From: Suillus spraguei
Taxonomy: Eukaryota > Basidiomycota > Agaricomycetes > Boletales > Suillaceae
DNA length: 64,000 bases
Assembly (NCBI GenBank): GCA_016800925.1
Contig: JABCPU010000225.1
Location: 46,937 to 110,936 of the forward strand
Reading direction: 5' to 3'
The notes beneath the pieces were generated by a model. It ran no database searches. It saw only the letters and a program-made list of their open reading frames with translations, and was not told where the DNA came from. This document shows positions 12,455-58,745 of this stretch, in pieces (within the stretch, counting starts at the first letter, position 1; each line of letters starts with the position of its first letter). Position numbers and translations under genes: made by a program.

Positions 12455-14151
12455 ATGACTGAGTTCTCAGATGACCCCGCTAATTGGCCGTACATCAGTT
12501 ATATTTTATTTGGCAACTATTTTCTAGGTTCGTAGAGAGAGTGATTACGATTCTCATGATGATGATGACTCAATACATTGCTTCGCAGTCGCAAGCTCTA
12601 CTATGCTGGTATATGATTGGGGTAAGTGAGATAACACGTTCCGAGAGATCACTGATATGTATACAGTATTCAAGCTTTAACATTCGGACAAGAGGTAAGT
12701 TGTTATCACAACCTACTACCTCACCGTGACTCAGAGTGCTTTAACAGTTCGATTTAATCTTGGTGAGCAAAGTCCTATCAGATCAAAATAGGATGACGCA
12801 ATTGACTCGGTGCAGAGCCAACGATGGTCTTCCATGACTGTTCTTTATATCTGTGTATGTCATTTCTCTGAGCGCAATTGGTATCCTGTACTGACTTCAA
12901 TACATGCTAGGTGCGCTGCATTGGGATACTATTTGCTGCGTACGTTTTCTATCTACGTAATACTACAATGTGTTAATAAGTTATATCTCGCAATCAGCAT
13001 CAACATCCTATGTATGTATCATCAAATGTGTTTGCTCCTTCTGACTGGCGGCATACAGCAATTCTTCCTACCACAATTAGCGATACAGTGGGTATTCTGT
13101 ATTGATGCCTGCCATTCCAATTGAAGTACTGACCACGCTTCTATACAGGAGTGAGTGATACTTCCGTGCTGACTCATGTCTTACGAATTGACTTCAACAG
13201 CTGTGGGTTCATTTGAAGCATTTATTCCATCATTATCTGACTGAGTTTTAGGCCTTATCATTTGGTACGTACTGACATGGGCCCCTGTCATCGTAAATGC
13301 TATGCTAGGTGGTGAGCTCACTCGTGGCTTCCTTACTAATATTAACTTGACTGAAATATCATTCAAAGTTGTCATGATTGCCCGAATAAATGCCATGTAT
13401 GAAGGATCCAAGAAGTTGCTCATCTTTCTTGTTCTGATCTTGCTGGCTTGCACGATCGTCTCCGGAGTTACGGTGGTTATTGAAAACTTGAATATCTCAG
13501 GGCGTAAGTTTTAATTATCAATAAAAGTCTAGAGCACAAGAGACTTATAGACATTTACCAGAGGAGGCCGTCCTTTCTGGCCTTAATATCTGCATCATGT
13601 ACCACGAGACGAGCCTGATTTACGAGAATCTGATACCCACCTTTGTGTGGGAGATCCTCGCCTTGTTTCTTACAATCTGGATTGTTGTAAAGCACTTCTG
13701 CGAACTGCGACAATCGCGGACAGGACCGTCCATTGGGAACTGCCTCAAGATGTTAATAGAGAGCCACACGTTTTATTTTCTGGCGTAAGTTCAATAATTT
13801 AGAAGATATTATCTTGTTTTGCTGACGTCCCGCATGTGCTAGCTTTGCTACTGTGGCTTCCTTGAGACTTGGCTCACTGTCTAATTTCACGGTGCGCCGA
13901 CGTGTGACGGCATCTGTAGTTGACTACTTATCATTTCTATGCAGAACACAACGTCCGTTGGGAGTGCTTTTTACTCTGGCATTTGGTCAATTGCCGAGGT
14001 ATTGCAGATGTTTGTACTGGGACCGCGTCTGATCCTCAGCATTCGTGAATATCATGCTGAGCTCGTGGCCAAGTCCGACGGAGGAACATGGATGGTGTCC
14101 ATCAGTGCTTTCCAGGTTGATGAAGATGCGTGGACCGGCGGAGATGTGTAG
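12455..14151 (+). CDS. DUF6533 domain multi-pass membrane protein, copy 1
   Basis: Same 15-exon plan as the copy at 38154. Early exons: 12455-12527, 12589-12621, 12675-12694, 12748-12762, 12816-12854, 12911-12939, then a 14-nt exon, then the 2-nt exons GA at 13149-13150 and CT at 13201-13202, and the last exon ending at 14151. The N-terminal domain reads ASSTMLVYDWALTFGQEFDL, the DUF6533 pattern; IARINAMYEGSKKLL marks the start of a central helix and VLQMFVLGPRLILSIR the C-terminus. No frameshift was found under the micro-exon model; if the 2-nt exons are denied, the region 13149-13200 contains stops. Function of the family is not known; several helices point to a membrane location. Confidence 0.8.
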
Positions 14152-15573: not shown

Positions 15574-17289
15574 ATGACCAAAGTCTCAGACGATCCCGTT
15601 AATTGGCCGTACATCAGCTATACTTTGGTTATCAACTATTTTATAGGTTCGTAGAGAGCAACTGCGATGCTCATCATGATTATGGTGACTCATATCAATA
15701 CTCTTGACAATTGCTTCGCAGCCGCAAGCTCTACTGTGGTGCTATACGATTGGGGTGAGCAAGATGATACGTTTCGAGGGATCATTGATATGTATACAGG
15801 ATTCAAGCATTAACATTCGGACAAGAGGTAAGTTGTTACCATCATGATGATCTGCGTATCTCACTAAGAGTGCTTTAACAGTTCGAACTGATCTTCGTGA
15901 GCAAAGTCCTATATCCGATAAGAACCAAACAGGATGATACAGCTGACTTGGGGCAGAGTCAACGGTGGTCTTTCATGACCGTTCTGTATATTTGTGTACG
16001 TTGTTGCTCCGAGTGCAATTGTCATCCTGAGCTGACTTCAATACATGCTAGGTGCGCTGCATTGGGATACTATTTTCTGCGTACGTTTTCTATCTACGCA
16101 ATATTGCAATGCACTAATAAGCAATCAGCATCAACATCCTATGTATGTATCCTCAAATACATTCGCTCCTTCTGACTGGCGGCATACAGCGATTCTGCCT
16201 GTCTTAATTACCGATGCAGTGAGTATTCCGTATTGATGCCTGTCATTCCCATTAAACTACTGATTACGCTTCTATATAGGAGTGAGTGACATTCTCTGTT
16301 GACTTGTGTCCGAAAATGACTTCGACAGCTGTGCGTTCATTTGAAGTATTTATCACATCATCAACTGACTGGGTTTTCAGGCCTCATAATTTGGTATGTA
16401 GGGACATGGGCCCCTGTCATCGTAAATGCCATGCTGGGCGGTGAGCTCACCCGCGGCTAACTGATATTAACCTGACTGAAATATTATTCAAAGTCGCCAT
16501 GATTGCTCGGTTAAATGCCATGTATCAAGGATCCAAAAGGTTGCTCATATTTCTCGTTATAACCTTGCTAGCTTGTACGATCATCTCCGGAGTTACGGTG
16601 GTCATTGAAAACTCGAGTATTTCAGCCCGTAAGTTTTGATTATTGATGACAGCCTTGAGCATAAGAGACTTATAAATGTTCACCAGAGGAGGCCGTGCTT
16701 TCCGGCTTTTATACCTGCATTACCTACAGCGAGACAAATCTGAATCTGATTTACGAGAGTCTGATACCAACCTCTGTATGGGAGATCCTCGCCTTGTTTC
16801 TTACGATCTGGATTGTCGTAAAGCACTTCTGTGAACTGCGACAATCGCCGACAGGATCGTCCATTGGGAACTGTCTCAAGATGTTAATAGAGAGTCACAC
16901 ATTTTATTTTCTAGCGTGAGTTCAGTGATTTGGATATTATTATCTTGTTTTACTGACGTCCCGCATGCGGTAGCTTTGCTATCGTGGCTTCCTTGAGACT
17001 TGGCTCACTGTCTAATGTTACGGTGTGCCGACATGTGACTGGCATATGTAGCTGACCACTGATAATTTCTACGCAGAACACGACATCCGTTGGGAGTGCT
17101 GTTTACTCTGGCATTTGGTCAATTGCCGAGGTATTGCAAATGTTTGTGCTGGGACCGCGTCTGATCCTCAGCATTCGTGAGTATCACGCTAAGCTCGTGG
17201 CCAGGGCCGACGGGGAAACATGGATGATGTCCATCAGTGCTTTGCAGATTGGTGAAGATGCGTTGACTGGCAGAGATGTGGATGTGTAG
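15574..17289 (+). CDS. DUF6533 domain multi-pass membrane protein, copy 2
   Basis: Begins MTKVSDDPVNWPYISYTL. All fifteen exons of the family model can be followed, including micro-exons GA at 16280-16281 and CT at 16329-16330. The exon after them reads LIIWYVGTWAPVIVNAMLG, then IARLNAMYQGSKRLL. The long exon near 16690 has two extra codons (repeat of NL) like copy 4. Relative to other copies, 4 nt are missing between the two micro-exons and 4 nt in the following intron; both fall in introns under the model, so the frame stays open to the stop at 17289. It is the closest relative of copy 4. Confidence 0.78.
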
Positions 17290-21472: not shown

Positions 21473-23170
21473 ATGACTGAATTCTCAGATGACCCCGTTA
21501 ATTGGCCGTACATCAGTTATATTTTGTTTGGCAACTATTTTCTAGGTTCGTAGAGAGCAATTACGATGTTCATGATGATGATGACTCATCTGAATCGCAG
21601 CCGCAAGCTCTACTGTGGTGATATATGATTGGGGTGAGTGAGATAATACGCTCCGAGGGATCACTAATATGTATACAATATTCGAGCCTTAACATTCGGA
21701 CAAGAGGTAAGTTGTTACCATGACCTGCGTATCTCACCGTGACTCAGAGTGCTTTAACAGTTCGATCTGATCTTGGTGAGCAGAGTCCTATCAGATCCAA
21801 ATGAGATGATGAGTTGACTTGGGGCAGAGCCAACGGTGGTCTTTCATGACTATCTTTATATTGTGTACGTTATTGCTCCGAGCGCAATTGGCATCCTGTG
21901 CTAACTTCAACATATGCATATGGTAGGTACGCTGCATCGGAATACTATTTGCTGCGTACGTTTTCTATCTTCGCAATACTACAATGTTCTAATAAGTTAT
22001 ATCTCGCAATCAGCATCAACATCCTATGTATGTATCCTTAAATGCGTTTGTTCCTTCTGACTGGCGGCATGCAGCGATTCTTCGTGTTGTAATTACCGAT
22101 GCAGTGGGTATTCTGCATTGATACCTCCCATTCCAATTAAAGTATTGACTACGCTTCTATACAGGAGTGAGTAATACTTCTGTGCTGACTTGTGTCCTTG
22201 CGAAAATGACTTCAACAGCTGTGGGTTCATTTGAAGCATTTATTCCATCATTATCTGACTGAGTTTTAGGTCTTATCATTTGGTATGTACTGACATGGGC
22301 CCCTGTCCTCGTAAATGCCATGCTGGGCGGTGAGCTCACCCGCGGCTTCCTTACTGATATTGACTTGACTGAAATATCATTCAAAGTCATCATGATTGCT
22401 CGGATAAACGCCATGTATGAAGGATCCAAGAAGTTGCTCATCTTTCTTGTTATAATCTTGCTGGCTTGCACTATCGTCTCCGGAGTCACGGTGATTATTG
22501 AAAACTTGAATATCTCAGGGCGTAAGTTTTGATCATCGATGAAAGCCTAGAGCATAAGAGACTAATAGACATTTACCAGAGGAGGCCGTCCTTTCCGGCT
22601 TTAATACCTGCATCATATTCAACCAGACAAATCTGATTTACGAGAATCTGATACCCACCTTTGTGTGGGAGATCCTCGCCTTGTTTCTTATGATCTGGAT
22701 TGTTATAAAGCGCTTTGTGAACTGCGACAATCATCAACAGGATCATCCTTTGGGAACTGTCTCAAGATGTTAATAGAGAGTCATACATTCTATTTTCTGG
22801 CGTGAGTTCAGTGATTTGGATGTCATTATCTTGTTTTTCTGACGTCCCGCGTGTGCTAGCTTTGCTGCTGTGGCTTCCTTGAGACTTGGCTCACTGTCTA
22901 ATGTTACGGTGCGCCGACATGTGACTGGCATCTGTAGCTGACTACTCATTTTTTTCTATGCAGAACACAACGTCCGTTGGGAGTGCTGTTTACTCTGGCA
23001 CTTGGGCAATTGCCGAGGTATTGCAGATGTTTGTGCTGGGACCGCGTCTGATCCTCAGCATTCGTAAATATTACGCTGAGCTCGTGGCCAAGTCTGACGG
23101 AGGAACATGTACGATGTCCATCAGTGCTTTCCAGGTTGGTGAAGATGCGTGGACCGGCGGAGATGTGTAG
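21473..23170 (+). pseudogene. DUF6533 family copy 3, two frameshifts
   Basis: Starts MTEFSDDPVNWPYISY and follows the family exon plan, with micro-exons GA at 22165-22166 and CT at 22219-22220. Two defects: a net 2-nt loss in the fifth exon (about 21848-21866, where other copies read MTVLYIC) and a 1-nt loss in the long thirteenth exon at about 22710 (TTC reduced to TT before GTGAACTGCG), which leads to a stop near 22770. An ATG in frame upstream (21420) would extend the N-terminus. The rest, including VLQMFVLGPRLILSIR, is well kept, so inactivation is recent or the indels are sequence errors. Confidence 0.75.
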
Positions 23171-33926: not shown

Positions 33927-35639
33927 ATGACCAAAGTCTCAGATGATCCCGTTTATTGGTCGTACATCAGCTATACTTTAGTTGTCAACTATTTTATAGG
34001 TTTGTGGAGGATGCCCATCATGATTATGGTGACTCATCACAATACCTTTGATAATTGCTTCGCAGCCGCAAGCTCTACTGTGGTGCTATACGATTGGGGC
34101 GAGTGAGAAAATACGTTCCGCAGGACAACTGATATGTATACAGGATTCAAGCATTAACATTCGGACAAGAAGTAAGTTGTTACCATGACCTGCGTATCTC
34201 ACCGTGACTCAGAGTGCTTTAACAGTTCGAACTGATCTTGGTGAGCAAAGTCCTATATCCGATAAGAATCAAACAGGATGATACAGTCGACTTGGGGCAG
34301 AGTCAACGGTGGTCTTTCATGACCGTTCTGTATATTTGTGTACGTTATTGCTCCTACCGCAATGGGCATCCTGTGCTGACTTCAATACATGCTAGGTGCG
34401 CTGCATTGGAATACTATTTTCTGCGTACGTTTTCTATCTACGTAATATTGCAATGTATTGATAAGTTATATCTCGTAATCAGCATCAACATCCTATGTAT
34501 GTATCCTCAAATGTGTTCGCTCCTTCTGACTGGCGGCATGCAGCAATTCTCCCTGTCTTAATTACCGATGCAGTGAGTACTCTGTATTGATGCCTGCCAT
34601 TCCCATTAAACTACTGATTGCACTTCTATATAGGAGTGAGTGACATTCTCTGTTGACTTGTGTCCTTCAGAAAATGACTTCGACAGCTGTGCGTTCATTT
34701 GAAGCATTTATTATACCATCAACTGACTGGGTTTTCAGGCCGCATCATTTGGTACGTAGGGACATGGGTTCCTGTCATCATAAATGCCATGCTGGGCGGT
34801 GAGCTCACCCGCGGCTTACTGGTATTGACTTGACTGAAATATCATTCAAAGTTGCTATGATTGCTCGGTTAAATGCTATGTATCAAGGATCTAAAAGGTT
34901 GCTCATAATTCTTGTTATAACCTTGCTAGCTTGTACGATCATCTCCGGAGTTACGGTGGTCATTGAAAACTCGAGAATTTCAACGCGTAAGTTTTGATTA
35001 TCGATGAAAGCTGGAGCATAAGAGACTTACAATATTTACCAGAGGAGGCCGTGCTTTCCGGCTTTTATACCTGCATTACCTACAGCGAGACCAATCTGAA
35101 TCTGATTTACGAGAGTCTGATACCAACCTCTGTATGGGAGATCCTCGCCTTGTTTCTTACGATCTGGATTGTCGTAAAGCACTTCTGTGAACTGCGACAA
35201 TCGCCGACAGGATCGTCCATTGGGAACTGTCTCAAGATGTTAATAGAGAGTCACACATTTTATTTTCTAGCGTGAGTTCAGTGATTTGGATGTTATCATC
35301 TTGTTTCGCTGATGTCCCGCATGTGGTAGCTTTGCTATCGTGGCTTCTTTGAGACTTGGCTCACTGTCTAATTTTACGGTGTGCCGACGTGTAATTGGCA
35401 TCTGTAGCTGATCACTCATCATTTCTTTGCAGAACACGACATCTATCGGGAGTGCTGTTTACTCTGGCATTTGGTCAATTGCCGAGGTATTGCAGATGTT
35501 TGTACTGGGACCGCGTCTGATCCTCAGCATTCGTGAATATCACGCTAAGCTCGTGGCCAGGTCCGACGGAGGAACATGGACGATGTCCATCAGTGCTTTC
35601 CTGGTTGGTGAAGATGCGTTGACCGGTAGAGATGTGTAG
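33927..35639 (+). CDS. DUF6533 domain multi-pass membrane protein, copy 4
   Basis: Starts MTKVSDDPVYWSYISYTL and follows the full exon plan, micro-exons GA at 34634-34635 and CT at 34687-34688, last exon ending 35639. Frame is open throughout. One change of note: the donor after YDW is gcgagt where the other copies have gtgagt or gtaagt, which would make this a GC-AG intron. It shares two extra codons in the thirteenth exon with copy 2. Flanked by the LINE remnant region upstream and the short 3' block downstream. Confidence 0.75.
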
Positions 35640-36586: not shown

Positions 36587-37147
36587 TCCTTGTAGTAACA
36601 AAGCTAGCAAATGCGGAACTTCAGTGAAATAAGATAACGGCATCCAACTCACCGAACTCATGCTAGAAAGTAGAATGTCTTGTGAAAACGTACACAGAGT
36701 ACAGTATTCCATTGTAGCGTACCTAGTAGTATATGTTGAAGTCAGCAACAACACGCCAGCTACGCTAGTAGCAGTAACGTCGACACTTACGTCAACTGTA
36801 TCATCCTGTTTGGTTCTTATCGAAGACTTCGCTCACCAAGAAAGTTCGAGCTGTTTAAAGCATTCTTGGTGAGATCTTGTGCAGGTCATGACATGAACAG
36901 AACCTACTTACCTCTTGTTCGAATTTTAAAGCTTGAATATCGTATACACATTAGTGGAACGTATTATATCGCTCACCCCAGTGATATACCACCGCAACAA
37001 CAGAGCTTGTAGCTGACAAAAAAAAGTCAAATATACTGATATGTCACCATTTCATCCCAATTGCTCTATGTGAACCTACAAAATAGCTGGAAATACGAGC
37101 AGAACGAGCGGCCATGAAGCGGGATCATCTAGTGAGACTATGGTCAT
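36587..37147 (-). pseudogene. Internally deleted DUF6533 copy on the minus strand
   Basis: The minus strand from 37147 carries the start codon and first four exons of a family member (start MTIVSLDDPASWPL, with one extra codon, then E2 about 37015, E3 about 36935, E4 about 36850), with promoter sequence cttttatagtg on the upstream side. Exons 5 to 12 are absent, and at 36587-36665 sequence of the exon 13/14 junction appears (gctagcaaatgcggaact). The fragment is divergent to copy 5 and separated from it by the 5' flanking block. Confidence 0.7.
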
Positions 37148-38153: not shown

Positions 38154-39861
38154 ATGACCGAAGTCTCAAATGACCCCGCTGATTGGTCGTACATCAGTTA
38201 TATTTTGTTTGGCAACCATTTTATAGGTTCGTAGAGAGTAATTACGATGCTCGTGTTGATGATGACCCATCTCAATACCTTCGCAGCCGCAAGCTCTATT
38301 ATGGTGCTGTATGATTGGGGTAAGCGAGATAGTACGTTCCGAGGGATCACTATATGTATACAGTATTCAAGCTTTAACATTCGGACAAGAGGTAAGTTGT
38401 TACCATGACCTGCGCATCTCACCGTGACTCAGAGTGCCTTAACAGTTCGATCTAATCTTGGTGAGTAAATCTTATCAGATGTAAATAGAATGGTGCTATT
38501 GACTTGGGGCAGAGCCAACGGTGGTCTTTCATGACTGTTCTTTATGTTTGTGTACGTTATTGCTCCGAGCGCAATTGGAGTCCTGTGCTGACTTCAACAT
38601 ATCCTAGGTGCGCTACGCTGGAATACTATTTGCTGCGTATGTTTTCTATCTATGCAGCACTACAATGTGCTAATAAGTTATATCTCGCAATCAGCATCAA
38701 CATCCTAGGTATGTATCCTCAAATGTGTTCGCTCCTTCTGACTGGCGGTATGCAGCGATTGTTCCTTTCGTAATTACCGATGCAGTGAGTATTTTGTATT
38801 GATACCTGTCATTCCAATTAAAGTACTGACTACGCTTATATATAAGGAGTGAGTGACACTTCCGTACTGACTTGTGTCCTTATGAAATTGACTTCAACAG
38901 CTGTGGGTTCATTTGAAGCATCTATTCTGTCGTTAACTGACTGGGTTTTAGGCCTTATCATTTGGTACGTAGGGTCATGGGTCCCTGTCATCGTAAATGC
39001 CATGCTGGGCGGTGAGCTCACCCACAGCTTCCTTACCGATATTGACCTGACTGAAATATCATTCAAAGTCGTCATGATTGCTCGGATAAACGCCATGTAT
39101 GAAGGATCCAAGAAGTTGCTCATCTTTCTTGTTATAATCTTACTGGCTTGCACGATCATCTCCGGAGTTACAGTGGTTATTGAAAACTCGGGTATTTCAG
39201 CGCGTAAGTTTTTATTATCGATGAAAGCCTGGGGCACAAAAGACTAATAGACATTTACCAGAGGAGGACATTCTTTCCGGCTTCAATACCTGCATCATCT
39301 ATAGCCAGACAAATCTGATTTACGAGAGTCTGATACCCACCTCTGTATGGGAGATCCTCGCCTTGTTTCTTACGATCTGGATTGTTATAAAGCACTTCTA
39401 TGAACTGCGACGATCACCGACGGGATCATCCTTTGGGAACTGTCTCAAGATGTTAATAGAGAGTCACATATTTTATTTTCTAGCGTGAGTTCAGTGATTT
39501 GAATATTATTATATTGTTTCATTGACGTTCCGCATGTGCTAGCTTTGCTACTGTGGCTTCTTTGAGACTCTGCTCACTGTCTACTGTTACTGTGCGCCCA
39601 CCTGTGTCTGGCATCTGTAGTTGACTACTGATCATTTCTATGCAGGACTCGACGTCGGTTGGAAGTGCTGTTTACTCTGGCATTTGGGCAATTGCCGAGG
39701 TATTGCAGATGTTTGTGCTGGGACCACGTCTGATCCTCAGCATTCGTGAATATTATGCAAATCTCGTAGCCAGGTCCGACGGGGAAACATGGATGATGTC
39801 CGACATCAGTACTTTCCAGGTTGATGAACATGAAGATGCATTGACCCGCGGAGATGTGTAA
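38154..39861 (+). CDS. DUF6533 domain multi-pass membrane protein, copy 5 (reference model)
   Basis: Exons: 38154-38226, 38287-38319, 38372-38391, 38446-38460, 38513-38551, 38608-38636, 38695-38708, 38756-38784, 38847-38848 (GA), 38901-38902 (CT), 38952-39011, 39069-39203, 39262-39484, 39543-39603, 39646-39861. They sum to 951 nt, 316 residues. The DUF6533 domain is at about residues 22-75 (ASSIMVLYDWALTFGQEFDL, then WSFMTVLYVCVRYAGILF). Central part: LIIWYVGSWVPVIVNAMLG, IARINAMYEGSKKLL, then WEILALFLTIWIV; C-terminus VLQMFVLGPRLILSIREYY. About seven hydrophobic segments suggest a multi-pass membrane protein. Family function is unknown; a receptor-like role is sometimes supposed but nothing here shows it. 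Each intron has a consensus donor and most a CTGAC-type branch site. Confidence 0.85.
38847..38902 (+). other. Two consecutive 2-nt micro-exons with intervening intron
   Basis: tataag|GA|gtgagt at 38847-38848 and caacag|CT|gtgggt at 38901-38902. The preceding exon ends in phase 0 at 38784 and the next starts at 38952 needing one base of a codon. Skipping both, or including only one, shifts the frame into stops or an unrelated frame; including both gives Asp-Cys followed by LIIWY. The intervening 52 nt start gtgagt and have a TGAC branch-like site near the acceptor. Confidence 0.7.
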
Positions 39862-43783: not shown

Positions 43784-45544
43784 CTACACATCTCCGTCAG
43801 TCGACACATCTCTACCAGTCAACACACCTCCACCAGCATGGAAAGCAATGGTCGTCATGCTTATTCCCCCATCAGCCCTGGCCGTGACCTTGGCGTAATA
43901 TTCTCGAATACTGAGGATCAAACGTGGTCCAAACACAAACGTCTGCAACATCTGGACAACTGAAATAACGCCAAAATAGGCAGTATTCCCCCCATCCACG
44001 GGCGGCGGTGAGTATCGGTTCTGCAAAGAAAATGATGAGAGGGGTCGACTGCAGATTTGAGTCACAGGTCAGCGCACCGTATTATTTGGAGACGCTGAGC
44101 TAAGCATAAAGCAAGCTACAGTCGCAAAGCTAGTACATGCGAGACTTTAGTGAAACAAGGTAATGATATCAAAATCACCAAACTCACGCCAGAAAGTAAA
44201 TTGCGTGACTCTTTATCAACACCATGAAACAGTCCCCAATGGTCGATCCTGTCGGCGATCGTCGCAATTCACGAAAGTGCTTTATAACAATCCAGACTGT
44301 AAGAAACATGGCGAGGACCTCCCATACAATAGGGGATATCACAGTCCCGCGATTCAGATTCATCAAGTCCGTGTCAGTTACGGTAATGCAGGTGTGGTAA
44401 CCGGAAAGGATAGCTTCCTCTGGCAAATGACCATGAGTTTGTTGTGCTCCAGGCTTTCATCAACAATTAAAACTTACGTGCCGAAATACCCAGGTTCTCA
44501 ATTACCACCATAACTCCGGAGACAATTGTGCAAGCCATTAAGGTTACAACAAGAAAGATCAGCAATCTTTTTGATCCCTGATACATGGCATTTATTCGAG
44601 CGATCATGATCGCTTGAATGAAATTTTTGTTAAGTCAACATCAGTAAGGAAACCGCAGGTGAGCTTACTGCCCAGCATGGCATTTACGATGACAGGGGCC
44701 CATATCCCTATGTACCAAATAATAGCGCCTGAAAACTTGGTTACTTTGCGGTGAAATAAAATACTTCAAATGAACTCACAACTGTTGAAGTCGTTAACTT
44801 GAAGACACAAGCTGGCCGAGAATATCACTCACCTCTATAAGAGTGTACTTAGTAGTTAAATGGGAATGGCAGGTATGGGTGCAGAATACGTACCACATCG
44901 ATGTTTGAAATAGGAAGACTCCCTATATACTGCCAGTCAGAAGGATTCGGAGTGAACGCATTCGAGGAGACATACACAGAAGGTTGATTCTAGTTGCGAG
45001 AGATGAAGTATTAGTACATTGTAGTGTTATATATATAGCCTTGCAAACTTACACAGAAATCAATATTCCGATATAGCGCACCTAGCACATGTCAACATGG
45101 TACAGGATGTCAAATGTGCTCATAGTAATAACGTACACACACATAAAGAACGGTCATGAATGACCAACGTTGGCTCTGCCCCCAGTCAAATGATTCATCC
45201 TGTTTGGTTCTAATATGATAGAAATTTGCCCACCAGGACCAGTTCGAACTGTTTAAAGTATTTTTAGTGAGATGAGGAGGTCATGACATCAACTTACTTA
45301 CTTCTTGTTCAAATGTTAATACTTGAAGACTGAATACATATCAATGATCCTTTGGTACGTATTATCCCGCTCACCCCAGTCGTATACTACCGCAGTAGAG
45401 CTTGCAGCTACGAAGTGACAGTCAAACGTATTGAGACGTCACCATTAACGTCTCAATTGCTCTGTACGAACCTACAAAATAGCTGGAAAGATGAGAAGAA
45501 CTGATGAGAGGCCATAAAGCAGGATCATCCGAGACTATGGTCAT
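43784..45544 (-). CDS. DUF6533 domain multi-pass membrane protein, copy 6
   Basis: Starts MTIVSDDPALWPLISS at 45544. All exons can be followed with open frame: micro-exons AG at 44833-44834 and TT at 44780-44781 (giving Ser-Cys), long exon with WEVLAMFLTVWIV, last exon with FVFGPRLILSIREYY ending at 43784. At the end of the fourteenth exon the ancestral VRR codons have become CGC-TGA; a donor gtgcgc 12 nt upstream, in the same phase, would avoid the stop. The two changes are shared with copy 7, so they predate that duplication. Gene is probably functional if the shifted donor is used. Confidence 0.72.
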
Positions 45545-46289: not shown

Positions 46290-46760
46290 CATTGCCAGTG
46301 ATTTTGGTGATTGCTGTACTAAGAACGCTATGCTGAGTGCCGACGGACCGAACCCATTCATCGCATGGGAGTACATCGGTGGCGAGCTTTCGGCATTGGT
46401 CGATCCTGTCGGCGATTGTCGCAGTTCAAGGAAATTCTTTATAATGATCCTGACTGTAAGAAATAAGGCGAGGATCTCCCATACAGCGGGGAGTATTACA
46501 CTCTTGTAAGAGAGATTTATTGTTTGCACGTCAGTTTTGGTGATGCAGGTATGGTAGCCGGAAAGGACGGCTTCCTCTGGTAAATGACCATGAGTCTCTT
46601 GTGCTCTAGGCTTTCTTCAACAATTAAAGCTTATGCGTTGAAATACCTTCAGTGACTTCCATATCATTAGTATTGCACGTCGTCCCAGCCCCAAGGCATA
46701 CGCATCTACCACTGACGGACTGGACCCATTCATCGCACAGACGTGACATAGTTATCATAG
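46290..46760 (+). pseudogene. Unknown repeated fragment, GPNPFIA type, copy 2
   Basis: Carries GPNPFIAWEYIGGELSAL, then a switch at about 46395 into minus-strand DUF6533 exon 13 sequence (46400-46600), then the end of the fragment again at 46650-46760. The junctions show that a piece of a family gene was inserted or recombined into it. Confidence 0.45.
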
Positions 46761-46951: not shown

Positions 46952-48714
46952 CTACATATCTCCGCCAGTCGACACATCTATACCAGTCAACACACCTCCA
47001 CCAGCCTGGAAAGCAATGGACGTTATGCTTATTCCCCCATCAGCCCTGGCCGTGACCTTGGCGTAATATTCTCGAATACTGAGGATCAAACGCGGTCCAA
47101 ACACAAAAGTCTGCAACATCTGGACAACTAAAATAACGCCAAAATAGGCAGTATTCCCCCGTCCACGGGCGGCGGTGAGTATCGGTTCTGCAAAGAAAAT
47201 GATGAGAGGGGTCGACTGCAGATTTGAGTCACAGGTCAGCGCACCGCATTATTTGGAGACGCTGAGCTAAGCATAAAGCAAGCTACAGTCGCAAAGCTAG
47301 TACATAGGGGACTTCAGTGAAACAAGGTAATGATATCAAAATCACCTAACTCACGCCAGAAAGTAAATTGTGTGACTCTTTATTAACACCATGAAACAGT
47401 CCCCAATGGTCGATCCTGTCGGCGATCGTCGCAGTTCACGAAAGTGCTTTATAACAATCCAGACTGTAAGAAACATGGTGAGGATCTCCCATACAATGGG
47501 GGATACCACAGTCTCGCGATTCAGATTCATTGAGTCCATGTCAGTCACGCCGATGATTGTCATGCAGGTGGAGTAACCAGAAAGGATGGCCTCCTCTGAA
47601 ATGACCATGAGTTTCTTGTTCTTCAGGCTTTCATCGATGATTGAAACTTACGTGCTGAAATACCTAGGTTCTCAATTACCACCATAACTCCAGAGACGAT
47701 TGTGCAAGCCAGCAAGGTTACAATAAGAAAGACCAGCAATCTTTTTGATCCCTCATACATGGCATTTATTCGAGCAATCATGATCACTAGGATGATATTT
47801 TAGCTAAGTTTATCAGTAAGGAAATTGCAGATGATCTCACCGCCCAGCAAGGCATTGACAATGACAGGGATCCATATCTCTATGTACCAGATGATAGTGC
47901 CTGAAAGCTCAGTTACTTGGTGGTGAAATAATACTTCAAAGGAACTCACAGCTGTTGAAGTTGTTATCTTGAAGACACAAGCTAACTGAAAATACCACTC
48001 ACCCCTATAGGAGTGTACTTAGTAGTTGAATGAGAATGGCAGATATCGGTGCAGAATACGCACTACATCGGTATTCGAAATAGGGAGATTGCCTATATGC
48101 TGCCAGTCAGAAGGATTCGGAGTGAACGCATTCAAGGAGACATACACAGAAGGTTGATGCTGGTTGCGAGAGATGACATATTAGTACATTGTAGCGTTAT
48201 GTATATAGCCTTGCAAACTTACACAGAAATCAATATTCCAATGGAGCGCACCTAGTATAAGTCAACATGACACAGCATGTCAAATGCGCTCGTAGCAACA
48301 ACGTACACACACATAAAGAACAGTTATGAATGACCAACGTTGGCTCTGCCCCGAGTCAAATGATTCATCCTGTTTGGTTCTAATATGATAGAAATTTGCC
48401 CACCAGGACCAGTTCGAACTGTTTAAAGTATTTTTAGTGAGATGAGGAGGTCATGACATCAACTTACTTACTTCTTGTTCAAATGTTAATACTTGAAGAC
48501 TGAATACATATCAATTATCTCTCGGTACGTATTATCCCGCTCACCCCAGTCGTATACCACCGCGGTAGAGCTTGCAGCTGTGAAGTGACAGTCAAACACA
48601 TTGAGACGTCACAATTGACATCGCAATTGCTCTATACAGACCTACAAAATAGCTGGAAAGACGAGAAGAACTGATGAGCGACCACAAACCAGGATCATCT
48701 AAAACTACGGTCAT
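46952..48714 (-). pseudogene. DUF6533 family copy 7, frameshift in last exon
   Basis: Starts MTVVLDDPGLWSLISS at 48714. Micro-exons GG at 48003-48004 and CT at 47950-47951 (Gly-Cys). All exons up to the fourteenth keep the frame, with the same shifted donor as copy 6. In the last exon a run of six G in copy 6 is five here (plus-strand ccccc near 47157), which shifts the frame before the conserved MFVLGPRL-type end. As the change is in a homopolymer it may be a sequencing error; copies 6 and 7 are otherwise very similar. Confidence 0.7.
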
Positions 48715-51013: not shown

Positions 51014-52750
51014 CTACACATCTTCGCTAGTCGACACATCTCTGCCGGTCAACGCACCTCCACCAGCCTGGAAAGCAATGGACGACATGCTTGTTCCTCC
51101 AGCCCCGGCTAAAACCTTAGCGTAGTGCTCTCGAATGCTGAGGATCAGACGCGGTCCTAGCACAAACATCTGCAATACCTCGGCAATTGACCAAATGCCA
51201 GAGTAATAGCACTCCCAATAGATGTCGTCGTGTTCTGCATAGAAATGATGAGTGGTCAGCTACAGATGCCAGTCACACGTTGGCGCACTGTAACATTAGA
51301 CAGTGGACCAAGTCTCAAGGAAGCCACAGTGGCAAAGCTAGCACATGCGGAACGTCAGTGAAACAAGATTATAACCCAAATCACCGAACTCACGCTAGAA
51401 AGTAAAACACGTGACTCTCTGTCAACATCTTGAGACAGTTCCCAATGGACGATCCTGTCGGTGATTGTCGTAATTCACGGAAGTGCTTTACAACAATCCA
51501 GACTGTAAGTAACAAAGCGAGGATTTCCCATACAGAGGTGGGTATCAGACTCTCGACAATTAAATTTGTGTCCTTGAAAGTATTGCAGGTATGAAAGCCG
51601 GCAAGGACGAACTCCTCTGGTAAATGTCTATAAGTCTCTTGTGCTCCAGGCTTTTATCGATAATCAAAACTTACGCGTGAAGATACCCGAGTTTTCAAGA
51701 ACCACCATAACTACGGAGATGATCGTGCAAGCCAGCAAGAATACAACGAGAAAGATGAACAACTTTTTGGATCCTTGATACAAGGCATTTATCCGAGCAA
51801 TCATGACGACTTTGAATGATATTCAGTCAAGCCAATATAGTAAGAAGCGTGGGAGAGCTCACCGCCCAGCATGGCATATACAATGACAGGGGTCCACATC
51901 TCTATGTACCAGATAATAGTGCCTGAAAACTCGTTTACTTGGTACTGAAATGAATACTTCAAATGAACTCACAGCTGTTGAAGTTGTTATCTTGAATACT
52001 TATCTTGAATACACAAGCCGGCCGAGAATATCACTCACCCCTATAGGAGGTGGTTAGTAGTTGAATGGGAAAGGCAGCCATCGATGCAGAATACGCACTA
52101 AATCGGTATTTGGAATAGGGAGATTCCCTATGTGCTATCAGTCAGAAGTGCTCGGAGCGAACACATTTGAGGATACATACACAAAAGGTTGATGCTGGTT
52201 GCAAAAGATGAGGTATTAGTACATTGTAGTGTTATATATAGCCTTGGAAACCTACACAGAAACCAATATTCCAATATAGCGCACCTAGCATAGTATGTCA
52301 AAGTCATTACCGTCAACATGATATAGCATATCAAATATACTCCCAGCAATAACGTACACACGTATAAAGAATGGTCATGAAGGACCAACGTTGGCTCTGC
52401 CCCGAGTCAAATGATTTATCCTGTTTGGTTCTGACATAGAACATTACTCACCAAGATCAGTTCGAACTGTTTAAAGCATTTTAATGAGATGCAGAGGTCG
52501 TGACATCAACTCACCTCTTGTCCAAATGTTAATGCTTGAATACTGGATACATATCAATGGTCCCTCGATACGTATTATCCCGCTCACCCCAGTCGTATAC
52601 CACCACAGTAGAGCCTGCAGCTGCGAAGTGACAGTATTGAGACGCCACCATCAGCATCTTAATTGCTCTATACGAACCTACAAAATAGCTGGAAAGACGA
52701 GAAGACCTGACGAGCGGCCAGACAGCAGGATCATCTGAGACTATGGTCAT
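51014..52750 (-). pseudogene. DUF6533 family copy 8, frameshift in last exon
   Basis: Starts MTIVSDDPAVWPLVRSS at 52750. Micro-exons GG at 52039-52040 and CT at 51973-51974. Between them a 13-nt tandem duplication (attcaagataagt) enlarges the intron without touching the frame under the model. In the last exon GCTGTTTACTC of other copies is GCTATTACTC (near 51205), one base shorter, which leads to a premature stop. The remainder is well preserved. Confidence 0.72.
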
Positions 52751-54065: not shown

Positions 54066-55778
54066 CTACCCATCTCCGCCAGTCAACGCATCTTCACCTA
54101 TCAACGTATCTCTACCAGCCTGAAAAGCAATGGACGTCATGCCTGTTTCCTCGTCTTCCCTGGCCACAAGCCTAGCGTAATATCCGCGAACGCTAAGAAT
54201 CAGGTGCGGTCCCAGCACAAACATCTGTATCATTTGCATTGTCCATAGTATACCAGAGTACATAGTAATTTCCATGGACGATGAGTTCTGCAGATAAATT
54301 ATGAGAGAGTGGTCAGTTGCCGATGTCAGACATGCACAGGGTGGCGCACCGTGATAGTTGGAGACAGTGAGCCAAGCATGAAGCAAGCTACAGCAGTAAA
54401 GCTAACACATGCAGAACTTCAGTGAAATGGAATAATGGCATCCAAATAACCAAACTCACGCTAGAAAGTGAAACGCGTGACCCTTTACTAACATCGTGAA
54501 ACAGTTTCCACTGGTCGATCCTGTCGGCGATTGTCGCAGCTCAAGGAAATTCTTTATAACGATTCTGACTGTAAGAAACAAGGCGAGGATTTCCCATACA
54601 GCGGGGAGTATTACACTCTCGTAAGAGAGATTTATTGTTTGCATGTCAGTTTTGGTGATGCAGGTATGGTAGCCAGAAAGGACGGCTTCCTCTGTAAATG
54701 ACCATGAGTCTCTTGTGCTCTATGCTTTCTTCAATAATTAAAACATACGCGATGAAATACCCATGCTTCTGGTTACTATAAAGACTCCGCAGGTGATCGT
54801 GGAAGTAGGTAATACTATAACAAGGAAGACGAACAACTTTTTAGATCCCTGATGCATGGCAATGATCCGAGAAATCATGATCACTTGGATGATATTTCAG
54901 CCAAGTCAATATCAGTGAGGCATCGCGGATGAGCTCACCTCCCAGCATGGTATTGACAATGGCAGGTATCCATGCCTGTATGTACCAAACGATAGTGCCT
55001 GAAACACCATTACTGAGTAGTGGAATAAACGCTTCGAATGAACTCACAGCTGTTAAAATAGTCATCTTGAAGAACAAGTTAGCAGAGAATATCACGCACC
55101 CCTATATAGGAACGTGGTTAGCAGTTAAATGGCAGCGGCAGGCATCGGTACAGAATACCTACGGCATCAGTACTCAGGATGGGGAGTGTCACTGTATGCC
55201 ACCAGTTAGACGAAGCGGGTACATCTGAGGATACATACACAGGAAATTGATGCTAGTTGTGAGGTATGGCTTATTAGCACGATGCAGTATTACACAGATA
55301 GTCTCGCAAACGTACACAGATAATAGTATTCCAATGTAGCGCACCTGGCATATATTGAAGTCAGCACAACATGAAAACTACACTCATAGTAGCAACGCAC
55401 ACAAATGAAAAGAACAGTCATCAAGGACCACCGTTGGCTCTGCCCGAGTCAATTACATAGGACTTTGCTCACTGATATCTGTTCAAACTGTTCAAATATT
55501 AATAGTGGGACACGTAGGTCATGATATCAACTCACCTCCTGTCCGAATGTTAAAGCTTGAATACCGTATACATATCAATGATCCCTCGGAACGCATTATC
55601 CCGCTCACCCCAGTTATATACCACCGCAGTAGAGCCTGCAGTTGCGGAGCAACGGTCAGATATATTGAGATGTCACCGTTCGCATCCCAGTTGCTCTATA
55701 CGGACCTACACAATAGCTGGAAAGGCTAGCAGAACTGATGAGCGGCCACAGAGCGGGATCATCTGAGATTATGGTCAT
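54066..55778 (-). CDS. DUF6533 domain multi-pass membrane protein, copy 9
   Basis: Starts MTIISDDPALWPLISSASLS at 55778. Micro-exons GG at 55100-55101 and CT at 55048-55049. The acceptor of exon 2 has changed from gcag to gcaa; the next AG, six bases on (ctgcag), keeps the frame with loss of two residues. All later exons are open: IIAMHQGSKKLF replaces the usual NAMYEGSKKLL, and the C-terminus reads MFVLGPHLILSVRGYY. It is the most divergent of the intact copies. The promoter box is degenerate (cactaaaag). Confidence 0.65.
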
Positions 55779-57032: not shown

Positions 57033-58745
57033 TTACACTTCTTCGCCCGTTGACACATCTCTGCCGGTCAACGCACCTCCATCAGCTTGAAAAGCAATGG
57101 ACGTCATGCCAATTCCCCCATCAGCCCTGTCCGAGATCTTAGCGTAGTATTCTCGAATGCTGAGGATCAGACGTGGCCCCAGCACAAACATCTGCAATAC
57201 CTGGGCAATCGACCAAATGCCAGAGTAAACAGCATTCCAAATGGATGTCGTGTTCTGTATAGAAATGATCAGTGGACAGCTACAGATGCCAGTCACATGT
57301 CGGCGCACTGTGGCATTAGACAGTGAGCCAAGTCTCAAGGAAGCCACAGTAGCAAAACTAGCACATGCGGGATGTCAGTGAAACAAGATAATAACATCCA
57401 AATCACTGAACTCACGCTAGAAAATAAAATGCGTGACTCTCTATTAACATCGTGAGACAGTCACCAATCGACGATCCTGTCTGTGATCGTCGCAGTTTAC
57501 GGAAGTGCATTACAACATTCCAGACCACAAGAAACAAGGCGAGGATCTCCCATACCAAGATGGGTGTCAGCCACTCGTAATTCAAACTCGGATTTGTCTC
57601 GCCGTAGGTAATGCAGGTATAGTAGCCGGAAAGGACGGCCTCCTCTGGTAATTGTCCATGAGTCTCTTGTGCTCTAAACTTTTATCGATAATTAAAACTT
57701 ACGCACTGAAACACCCAGGTTTTTAATAACCACCATAACTCCGGAGTGATCGTGCAAGCCAGCAAGGTTACAACAAGAAAGATGAACAACTTCTTGGATC
57801 CTTGGTACATGGCATTTATACGAGCAATCATGACGACTTTGAATGATATTTCAGTCAAGCCAACATCAGTAAGAAGCCACGGGTGAACTCACCGCCCAGT
57901 ATGGCATTTACGATGACAGGATTCCACGTCCATATGTACCAATTTATGGTGCCTGAAAACACAGTTCCTTAGTGGTGAAATAAATACTTCAAATGAACTC
58001 ACAGCTGTTGAAAAGGTCATCTCGAAGACACAAACCAGCAGAGAACGTCACTCACTCCTATATAGGAATGTAGTCAGTAGTTGAACTGCAATGGCAGGTA
58101 TCAGTGCAGAATACTCACCACATCGGTAATTAAGACAGGGAGAATTGCTGCATACCGCCAGTCAGAGGGAGCGAATGCATTTGAGGATACGTACATAGGA
58201 TACTGGTGCTGGTTGCGAGATATGATGTTTAGCGCATTGCAGTGTTACATAGATAGAAAACGTACGCAAAGATAGTATTCCAATGTAGCGTACCTAGCAT
58301 ATGTTGAAATCAGCACAAGATGCCAATTGCGCTCGGAGCAATAACGTACACAAATATAAAGAACCGTCATGAAAGACCACCGTTGGCTCTACCCCGAGTC
58401 AACTGCATCATCCTATGTGGATCTGATATAGGACTTTGCTCACCAAGATAAGATCGAACTGTTAAGGCACTCTTAGTGAGATACGCTGGTCCATGATGGT
58501 GACAACTTACCTCTTGTCCAAATGTCAATGCTTGAATACTGTATGCATATCAATATCCCTCAGAACATATTATATCGCTCACCCCAATCGTATACCATCA
58601 CAGTAGAGCTTGCAGCTGCGAAGCAATAGTCACCATCATGATTGGCATCATAATTGCTCAGATTCCACGAACCTACAAAATAGTTTACAACAGAAGAATA
58701 ACTGACGAACGGCCAATTAACGGGATCATTTGAGATTATGGTCAT
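57033..58745 (-). pseudogene. DUF6533 family copy 10, two frameshifts
   Basis: Starts MTIISNDPVNWPFVSYSS at 58745. Micro-exons GA at 58056-58057 and CT at 58013-58014. The sixth exon is 28 nt instead of 29 (CTATCTTTGC near 58262) and the twelfth lacks one base (ATCACTCC for ATCATCTCC near 57745). The C-terminus (VLQMFVLGPRLILSIREYY) is intact. Exon 11 reads TINWYIWTWNPVIVNAILG. In sequence it is close to the plus-strand copies rather than to copies 6 and 7. Confidence 0.72.

What the first reader, a model, noticed from the sequence alone, without database searches (positions are those of the whole stretch)
38785..38951. Two consecutive 2-nucleotide exons conserved in ten paralogues
Between the exon ending GAT GCA (38784) and the exon starting GC CTT ATC (38952), the sequence contains three intron-like units separated by the dinucleotides GA and CT, each with ag before and gt after. 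Only including both restores frame (Asp-Cys-Leu); skipping one or both gives stops or a foreign frame. All ten copies keep the layout: first dinucleotide GA, GG or AG, second CT or TT, encoding D/G/S then C, with the C/T change at a synonymous third position. The 50-odd nt between the dinucleotides differ by 1, 2, 4 and 13 nt among copies, which fits intron and not exon. Micro-exons of 2 nt, and two in a row, would be extreme.
Basis: partly seen in the sequence, partly recalled or inferred. Interest (0 to 1): 0.92.

Follow-up and report, generated by a model that had tools for sequence, protein, structure and literature searches.

The report
Two back-to-back two-letter exons
In a mushroom gene family, the message for one conserved protein position is split over two consecutive exons of only two letters each; proteins that appear to come from transcripts carry both, while most of the public gene models examined read this spot differently.

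Summary
Confirmed and upheld. The window is most likely Suillus spraguei (Boletales). All ten DUF6533 copies keep exon 8 | intron (58-62 nt) | GA/GG/AG | intron (47-64) | CT/TT | intron (49-51) | exon 11. The same double 2-nt exon parses in 67 of 74 sampled family loci of this genome, with Cys in 63 of 63 distinct parsed loci.

RNA-level support: of 48 jgi/lgn-labelled homologues listed, 41 span the site and 41 of 41 have Cys there (30 as T-D-x-x-Cys); 34 lie on contigs too short for the introns they span. One, P0131, matches genomic locus L079 at residues 1-207; only one linear splice path in L079 gives its peptide there: exons GG and AT.

About 116 of 183 listed public models look like it; none of the 41 does.

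The split codon makes a Cys at the start of TM3 in a GPCR-like 7TM model. A sister subfamily has only the first 2-nt exon. One-nucleotide exons are known, also in a fungus; my searches found no report of two consecutive 2-nt exons.

The parts
38154..39831 (+). copy c38, DUF6533 7TM gene, 15 predicted coding exons (73,33,20,15,39,29,14,29,2,2,60,135,223,51,166 nt as far as the query reached; the last three rest on a composite query)
   Evidence: spliced alignment
38756..38784 (+). exon 8 of c38, ends GAT GCA
38785..38846 (+). intron 1 of the cluster, 62 nt, GTGAGT..TAAG
38847..38848 (+). 2-nt exon 9: GA
38849..38900 (+). intron 2, 52 nt, GTGAGT..ACAG; if retained its donor gives an immediate in-frame TGA
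38901..38902 (+). 2-nt exon 10: CT (C = wobble base of the Asp codon, T = first base of the Cys codon)
38903..38951 (+). intron 3, 49 nt, GTGGGT..TTAG, splits the Cys codon T|GC
38952..39011 (+). exon 11 of c38, starts GC CTT ATC
13149..13150 (+). copy c12: 2-nt exon GA (second, CT, at 13201-13202)
16280..16281 (+). copy c15: 2-nt exon GA (second, CT, at 16329-16330)
22165..22166 (+). copy c21: 2-nt exon GA (second, CT, at 22219-22220); gene has a 2-nt shorter exon 5
34634..34635 (+). copy c34: 2-nt exon GA (second, CT, at 34687-34688)
44833..44834 (-). copy c45: 2-nt exon AG (second, TT, at 44780-44781)
48003..48004 (-). copy c48: 2-nt exon GG (second, CT, at 47950-47951)
52039..52040 (-). 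copy c52: 2-nt exon GG (second, CT, at 51973-51974)
55100..55101 (-). copy c55: 2-nt exon GG (second, CT, at 55048-55049)
58056..58057 (-). copy c58: 2-nt exon GA (second, CT, at 58003-58004)

Best explanation
The site holds three ordinary short introns separated by two exons of 2 nt each. Mature mRNA joins exon 8 + N1N2 + N3T + exon 11, giving two codons, N1N2N3 (in the loci read here Asp, Glu, Gly, Arg or Ser) and TGY (Cys). Shown: the layout in DNA, its conservation in the family, and transcript-type proteins containing both dinucleotides. Inferred: (a) splicing works by intron definition, each intron paired on its own and removed one after another, because two spliceosomes cannot share two nucleotides; (b) the pair is kept because it encodes a conserved Cys at the start of TM3, probably disulfide-bonded to a second conserved Cys in the loop between TM4 and TM5, as in GPCRs; (c) if intron 2 is not removed, its GTGAGT donor gives an immediate in-frame stop (GNG TGA), so failed splicing yields a truncated or decayed transcript.
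For: Alignment without gene model, 10 of 10 copies. Spliced alignment to proteins from outside the window finds the pair in 10 of 10 copies with query P0010 and with P0176, also when introns up to 200 nt are allowed; dinucleotide-shuffled intron regions give the double pair in 5 of 400 trials and any exon of 2 nt or less in 78 of 400. 67 of 74 family loci in the genome parse the same way (64 of the 74 lie outside the window; two places are in the set twice); 63 distinct, 53 of them outside the window: N3 is A32/C13/T10/G8, as a wobble base should be, and Cys is 63 of 63. 41 of 41 spanning jgi/lgn-labelled proteins have Cys at the site; 34 of the 41 sit on contigs shorter than their coding length plus 45 nt for each intron spanned (35 at 50 nt, 28 at 40 nt). 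L079/P0131: residues 1-207 identical, unique linear splice solution. Five further jgi/lgn proteins (P0013, P0016, P0020, P0026, P0031) end where exon 8 + exon 9 + retained intron 2 would end. C86 and C161 invariant in the 35 of these 41 proteins that I aligned; the model places C86 at the start of TM3 and C161 in a loop hairpin, and the best PDB folds are GPCRs.
Against: No RNA read could be mapped here: the RNA evidence is protein sequence, and that the contigs are cDNA is inferred from their length. P0131 departs from L079 after residue 207, so that contig may be chimeric. For the ten window copies no identical transcript-type protein was listed; the nearest spanning one is P0176 (71% identity to c38). 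Spliced-alignment queries contain the Cys, which favours finding it. In the 63 loci, 2 parses use GC as donor of intron 1 and 2 of intron 2. Order of splicing is not shown. 7 of 74 loci do not parse: five show the AG|NN|GT layout by eye but are broken or oddly framed, L066 was not read through, L076 is cut by a contig end.
Confidence: 0.93

Rival explanations
1. One long intron: exon 8 runs 4 nt further (GTNN) to a second GT inside the first donor, and a single 158-172-nt intron leads to exon 11, giving for instance D-A-V-S-L. No micro-exons.
For: In frame in 10 of 10 window copies. Many public gene models look like it: about 116 of 183 annotated homologues listed, by a motif sort, including P0076 and P0228 on this very contig. 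The second GT is present in 54 of 63 distinct loci.
Against: 0 of 41 spanning jgi/lgn proteins has V-S; all 41 have the Cys. It loses a Cys that is invariant in 35 of 35 aligned. It leaves the conserved inner AG|NN|GT pairs and the wobble pattern unexplained. The intron would be about three times the usual length. With introns up to 200 nt allowed the aligner still prefers the micro-exons in 10 of 10.
Confidence: 0.03
2. Nested (stwintron-like) splicing: an inner intron must leave before an outer intron's donor, branch point or acceptor is complete, and the dinucleotides are parts of such split elements rather than exons.
For: Stwintrons are well documented in fungi (PMC6616335, passages seen; listing of ten papers).
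Against: Each of the three units has its own donor and acceptor, and the four nucleotides end up in the mRNA, which is exon behaviour. My enumeration covered linear splice paths only, not nested ones.
Confidence: 0.03
3. The site is spliced poorly and serves mainly as a switch: intron 2 stays in, the donor supplies a stop, and many transcripts encode a protein of about 85 residues; full-length protein is made only when splicing is permitted.
For: 5 of 48 jgi/lgn proteins end at this stop and one more (P0024) seems to run into intron 1. The stop arises in 9 of 10 window copies if intron 2 is kept.
Against: 41 of 48 read through the site; contig counts say nothing about abundance. Incomplete splicing is common in assembled transcriptomes (recalled). 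This adds to, rather than replaces, the two-exon reading.
Confidence: 0.15

Closest known systems
1-nt exon of Fusarium CYP621A P450 genes (PMC12940212, 2026; part 1 of 3 of the text and passages read)
   Same: Fungal, conserved over orthologues, inferred from frame and backed by transcripts, encodes part of a conserved motif, missed by annotation
   Different: One exon of 1 nt in orthologues of one genus; here two consecutive 2-nt exons in dozens of paralogues of a basidiomycete
1-nt exons of plant APC11 and VPS55 (PMC4674806, abstract and Discussion read; PMC8831610, passages read)
   Same: Constitutive ultra-short exon, conserved GTRAGT donors (VPS55), missing from annotations, intron definition with stepwise removal proposed
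   Different: Single micro-exon, plants; the adjacent pair mentioned in the passages I saw is 5 and 12 nt (rice)
Microexons of 2-10 codons in Phanerochaete P450 genes (PMC1184071, passages read)
   Same: Basidiomycete, short introns of 45-55 bp, many genes
   Different: Shortest exon 6 bp
Stwintrons, nested fungal introns (PMC6616335, passages read)
   Same: Clusters of adjacent short U2 introns in fungi
   Different: The outer intron's splice elements are interrupted and nothing inside is kept as exon

Membership tests
ultra-short spliceosomal microexon | internal exon of a few nt flanked by introns with canonical borders | tested here: met
   donors GT in 61, 61 and 63 of 63 for introns 1-3, the rest GC
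ultra-short spliceosomal microexon | included in mature mRNA | tested here: met
   indirectly, through protein sequences: Cys in 41 of 41 spanning, 34 of 41 on contigs too short for their introns, unique linear path in L079; no reads mapped, none for the window copies themselves
ultra-short spliceosomal microexon | inclusion preserves reading frame and a conserved residue | tested here: met
stwintron | inner intron interrupts donor, branch point or acceptor of an outer intron | tested here: not met
   each unit has its own donor and acceptor; intervening nt kept in mRNA; nested paths not enumerated
recursive (zero-nt exon) splicing | acceptor directly followed by regenerated donor, nothing kept | tested here: not met
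   two nt lie between and appear in the protein
DUF6533 (PF20151) | profile match over cut-off | tested here: met
   3 of 4 proteins given: P0131, P0162, P0076 at 49-57 bits, cut-off 24.1; P0176, which lacks the N-terminal part, no match
class A GPCR | 7TM fold with TM3 Cys and loop Cys | tested here: inconclusive
   AlphaFold model pLDDT 80.9, seven long helices plus hairpin; the 50 PDB rows shown are GPCRs, mostly class A, TM-score by query 0.37-0.56, 10-15% identity, 9 matches at E <= 0.001; Cys-Cys distance not measured
class A GPCR | sequence motifs such as DRY, NPxxY | not tested
   not examined

The most novel reading that the evidence does not exclude
A stack of introns has grown around one conserved Cys codon: one intron in some DUF6533 genes (L092), two introns with one 2-nt exon in a sister subfamily (11 of 12 loci) and in the more distant L083, three introns with two 2-nt exons in the large family. 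Splicing must then run in a fixed order over overlapping recognition sites, and the intron-2 donor doubles as a stop codon, so the cluster acts as a splicing checkpoint for a large family of receptor-like membrane proteins.
Probability: 0.35. Interest if true: 0.87.

Novelty: new variant of a known kind. Interest (0 to 1): 0.75.

Why it matters
It pushes the lower limit of exon size in a new way: not one ultra-short exon but two in a row, with three introns in about 165 nt, in dozens of genes of one genome. That makes the open question of how spliceosomes handle exons too small to be shared directly testable, with many natural variants of dinucleotide, donor and intron length. It also means that most of the 183 public models listed here are probably wrong at a conserved Cys, because a 4-nt donor shift happens to mimic the 2+2 nt.

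Tried and rejected
Rejected: the +4-donor single intron (rival 1); nested introns (rival 2); exon skipping (foreign frame or stops). Tried without result: a genome-wide pattern count of the double layout (not completed). Not done: a tree of DUF6533 subfamilies, so gain versus loss of introns stays open; distance between the two Cys. L098 and L099 were looked at and left unparsed. In the sister subfamily a reading with intron 2 kept looks open in L085-L087 (by eye); but the intron-2 lengths of the 11 loci, 47 to 59 nt, differ by amounts that are not multiples of three. A first estimate that 37 of 41 contigs are too short (14 introns of 50 nt for every protein) overstated the case for incomplete proteins; one search counts only introns spanned and gives 34 of 41 at 45 nt each.

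Full report
What the window is. The window ends a 110,936-base contig of an 86.2-Mb genome. Seven listed public proteins of Suillus spraguei lie on a contig of that length (P0008, P0076, P0166, P0167, P0170, P0179, P0228), and P0008 reads as copy c21 over about its first 80 residues. I infer S. spraguei (Boletales). The window carries ten long copies of a DUF6533 gene, five on each strand.

The observation. Between exon 8 and exon 11 of the copy at 38154-39831 lie GA (38847-38848) and CT (38901-38902), each with AG before and GT after. An alignment of the ten copies made without a gene model keeps these borders in all ten. Intron lengths are 58-62, 47-64 and 49-51 nt. Copies c38, c12, c34, c15 and c52 read open from ATG through exon 12, and c45 too when exon 3 uses a donor 4 nt upstream. 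c21 and c58 have lost bases in other exons; c48 and c55 were cut at exon 1 by my slices, and c55 has CAA instead of CAG before exon 2.

An overlooked route. Skipping one or both dinucleotides breaks the frame in 10 of 10 copies, but a donor 4 nt downstream (the second GT of GTNNGT) with one long intron is in frame in 10 of 10. Many public gene models look like this: by a simple motif sort, about 116 of the 183 annotated homologues listed show x-V-S/G/R/C, 15 show x-C and 52 something else. An alignment-based count of the same 183 gives Cys in 33; part of the difference is that forms such as x-V-C fall in the first class of the motif sort.

Is it more than chance? A spliced aligner written here, with a stretch of P0010 as query (a protein from a 960-base contig, of another clade), finds both 2-nt exons in 10 of 10 copies; so does P0176, also when introns up to 200 nt are allowed, which lets the rival in. 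With the intervening sequence shuffled, the double 2-nt parse appears in 5 of 400 trials, and some exon of 2 nt or less in 78 of 400. A gapped pattern built from the copies hits nine of them in the window and 0 in 100 shuffles.

The family. I examined 74 loci: the 30 fetched from the best matches (ten are the window copies), 40 more from its list, taken from the top down with some left out and not at random, and 4, of which two repeat places already held. 67 parse with two consecutive 2-nt exons; 4 repeat the introns of another, leaving 63 distinct, 53 outside the window. First exon GG 35, GA 24, AG 4; second AT 32, CT 13, TT 10, GT 8. The joined codons give G 35, E 16, D 8, R 3, S 1, then Cys 63 of 63. 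The first base of exon 10 thus behaves as a third codon position and the second base does not vary. The queries contain the Cys, which favours finding it. Of the 7 loci that do not parse, L026, L032, L034, L063 and L074 show the same AG|NN|GT layout by eye but are broken or oddly framed (printed), L066 is a relative of L063 that I did not read through, and L076 is cut by a contig end.

RNA-level evidence. The protein database lists relatives from jgi and lgn sources on contigs of about 1-3 kb. A gene of this family with a 313-residue product has 14 introns adding roughly 0.8 kb, so a protein of that length on a 1,022-base contig (P0100) should come from spliced RNA; this is my inference from length. 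In the rows listed by the three searches (45 of 45, 120 of 1,343 and 120 of 301 hits) I counted 48 such proteins. 41 span the site, and 41 of 41 have Cys there, preceded two residues before by T-D in 30, T-N in 5, S-D in 4, T-G and T-E in 1 each. 34 of the 41 are on contigs shorter than coding length plus 45 nt for each intron spanned. None shows the +4-donor product. The other 7: five end where exon 9 followed by intron 2 would end (..TDVE..TDAG..PDAE..TNTG..SDSG; the stop would be the TGA of the GTGAGT donor), one (P0024) seems to run into intron 1, one (P0025) starts downstream. Their DNA was not seen; the five fit intron 1 removed and intron 2 kept.

The tightest case. P0131 (lgn, 1,074-base contig) equals the spliced product of locus L079 of this genome at residues 1-207; it differs after that, perhaps because the contig is a chimera of two paralogues. 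Enumerating every linear splice path in L079 (GT or GC donors, introns of 20-260 nt, exons from 1 nt, at most 5 introns) that yields P0131's peptide TILLSDAGCWILYIAVNW leaves one: introns of 58, 48 and 60 nt around exons GG and AT. Nested paths were not enumerated.

Why the letters are kept. Cys 86 and Cys 161 are invariant in the 35 of the 41 proteins that I aligned. An AlphaFold2 model of P0162 (mean pLDDT 80.9) shows seven long helices; Cys 86 lies at the start of the third (83-115) and Cys 161 in a hairpin between helices 4 and 5. The 50 Foldseek rows shown from the PDB are GPCRs, mostly class A, at TM-scores by query of 0.37-0.56 and 10-15% identity; 9 matches reach E <= 0.001. By analogy with the TM3-loop disulfide of GPCRs (recalled) I infer a disulfide; the distance was not measured.

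Where it came from. In the same genome a sister DUF6533 subfamily shows, in 11 of 12 loci searched with a pattern that I fitted to it, one 2-nt exon (AG) at the matching place, with intron 1 in phase 0 and intron 2 in phase 2, and an unsplit Cys codon. L083, more distant, fits one 2-nt exon TT; L092 fits one intron and an unsplit TTC TGC (borders picked by eye). These are readings of DNA without transcripts. They suggest stepwise gain of introns 2 and 3, but loss is not excluded.

Mechanism. The introns are short and each carries its own donor and acceptor; a strict CTRAY branch motif is found in 28, 28 and 50 of 63 for introns 1-3. I favour intron definition with sequential removal, as proposed for the 1-nt exon of Arabidopsis (PMC4674806, Discussion). 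Order is not known. Retained intron 2 gives an immediate stop in 9 of 10 copies, so failure is contained.

Known or new. Single 1-nt exons are known in plants (PMC4674806, PMC8831610) and, reported in 2026, in Fusarium CYP621A (PMC12940212, found; its introduction also cites exons of 2-5 bp in Arabidopsis, Drosophila and human). Searches for 2-nt or two-nucleotide exons, tiny exons in fungi, DUF6533, microexons in basidiomycetes, single-nucleotide exons and microexons (30 of 731 listed) and micro-exons with Suillus or Agaricomycetes (15 of 407 listed) showed me no report of two consecutive 2-nt exons; the library lacks most subscription papers. I call it a new variant of a known kind.

Noticed in passing
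window 38372-38391, 38446-38460, 38695-38708: The same gene has other small exons of 20, 15 and 14 nt; the DUF6533 domain is spread over several small exons, whereas the sister subfamily seems to have much of it in one exon.
   Followed up: partly
public proteins of this window: P0076, P0166, P0167, P0170, P0179, P0228, P0008: Public models of the window copies solve the junction in different ways (V-S, a gap, T-Y-C, read-through of intron sequence).
   Followed up: partly
L085-L097: Sister DUF6533 subfamily with a single 2-nt exon AG between introns with weak donors (GTTCTA, GTTTGT and the like) in 11 of 12 loci.
   Followed up: partly
window 36594-37015 (-) and 46402-46647 (-): Partial copies of the gene between the full ones, probably decayed duplicates.
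   Followed up: no
copy c45, end of exon 3: Duplicated donor GTAAGTAAGT; only the upstream one keeps frame.
   Followed up: no
P0131 against L079: Identity stops abruptly after residue 207; chimeric contig or gene conversion between paralogues.
   Followed up: no
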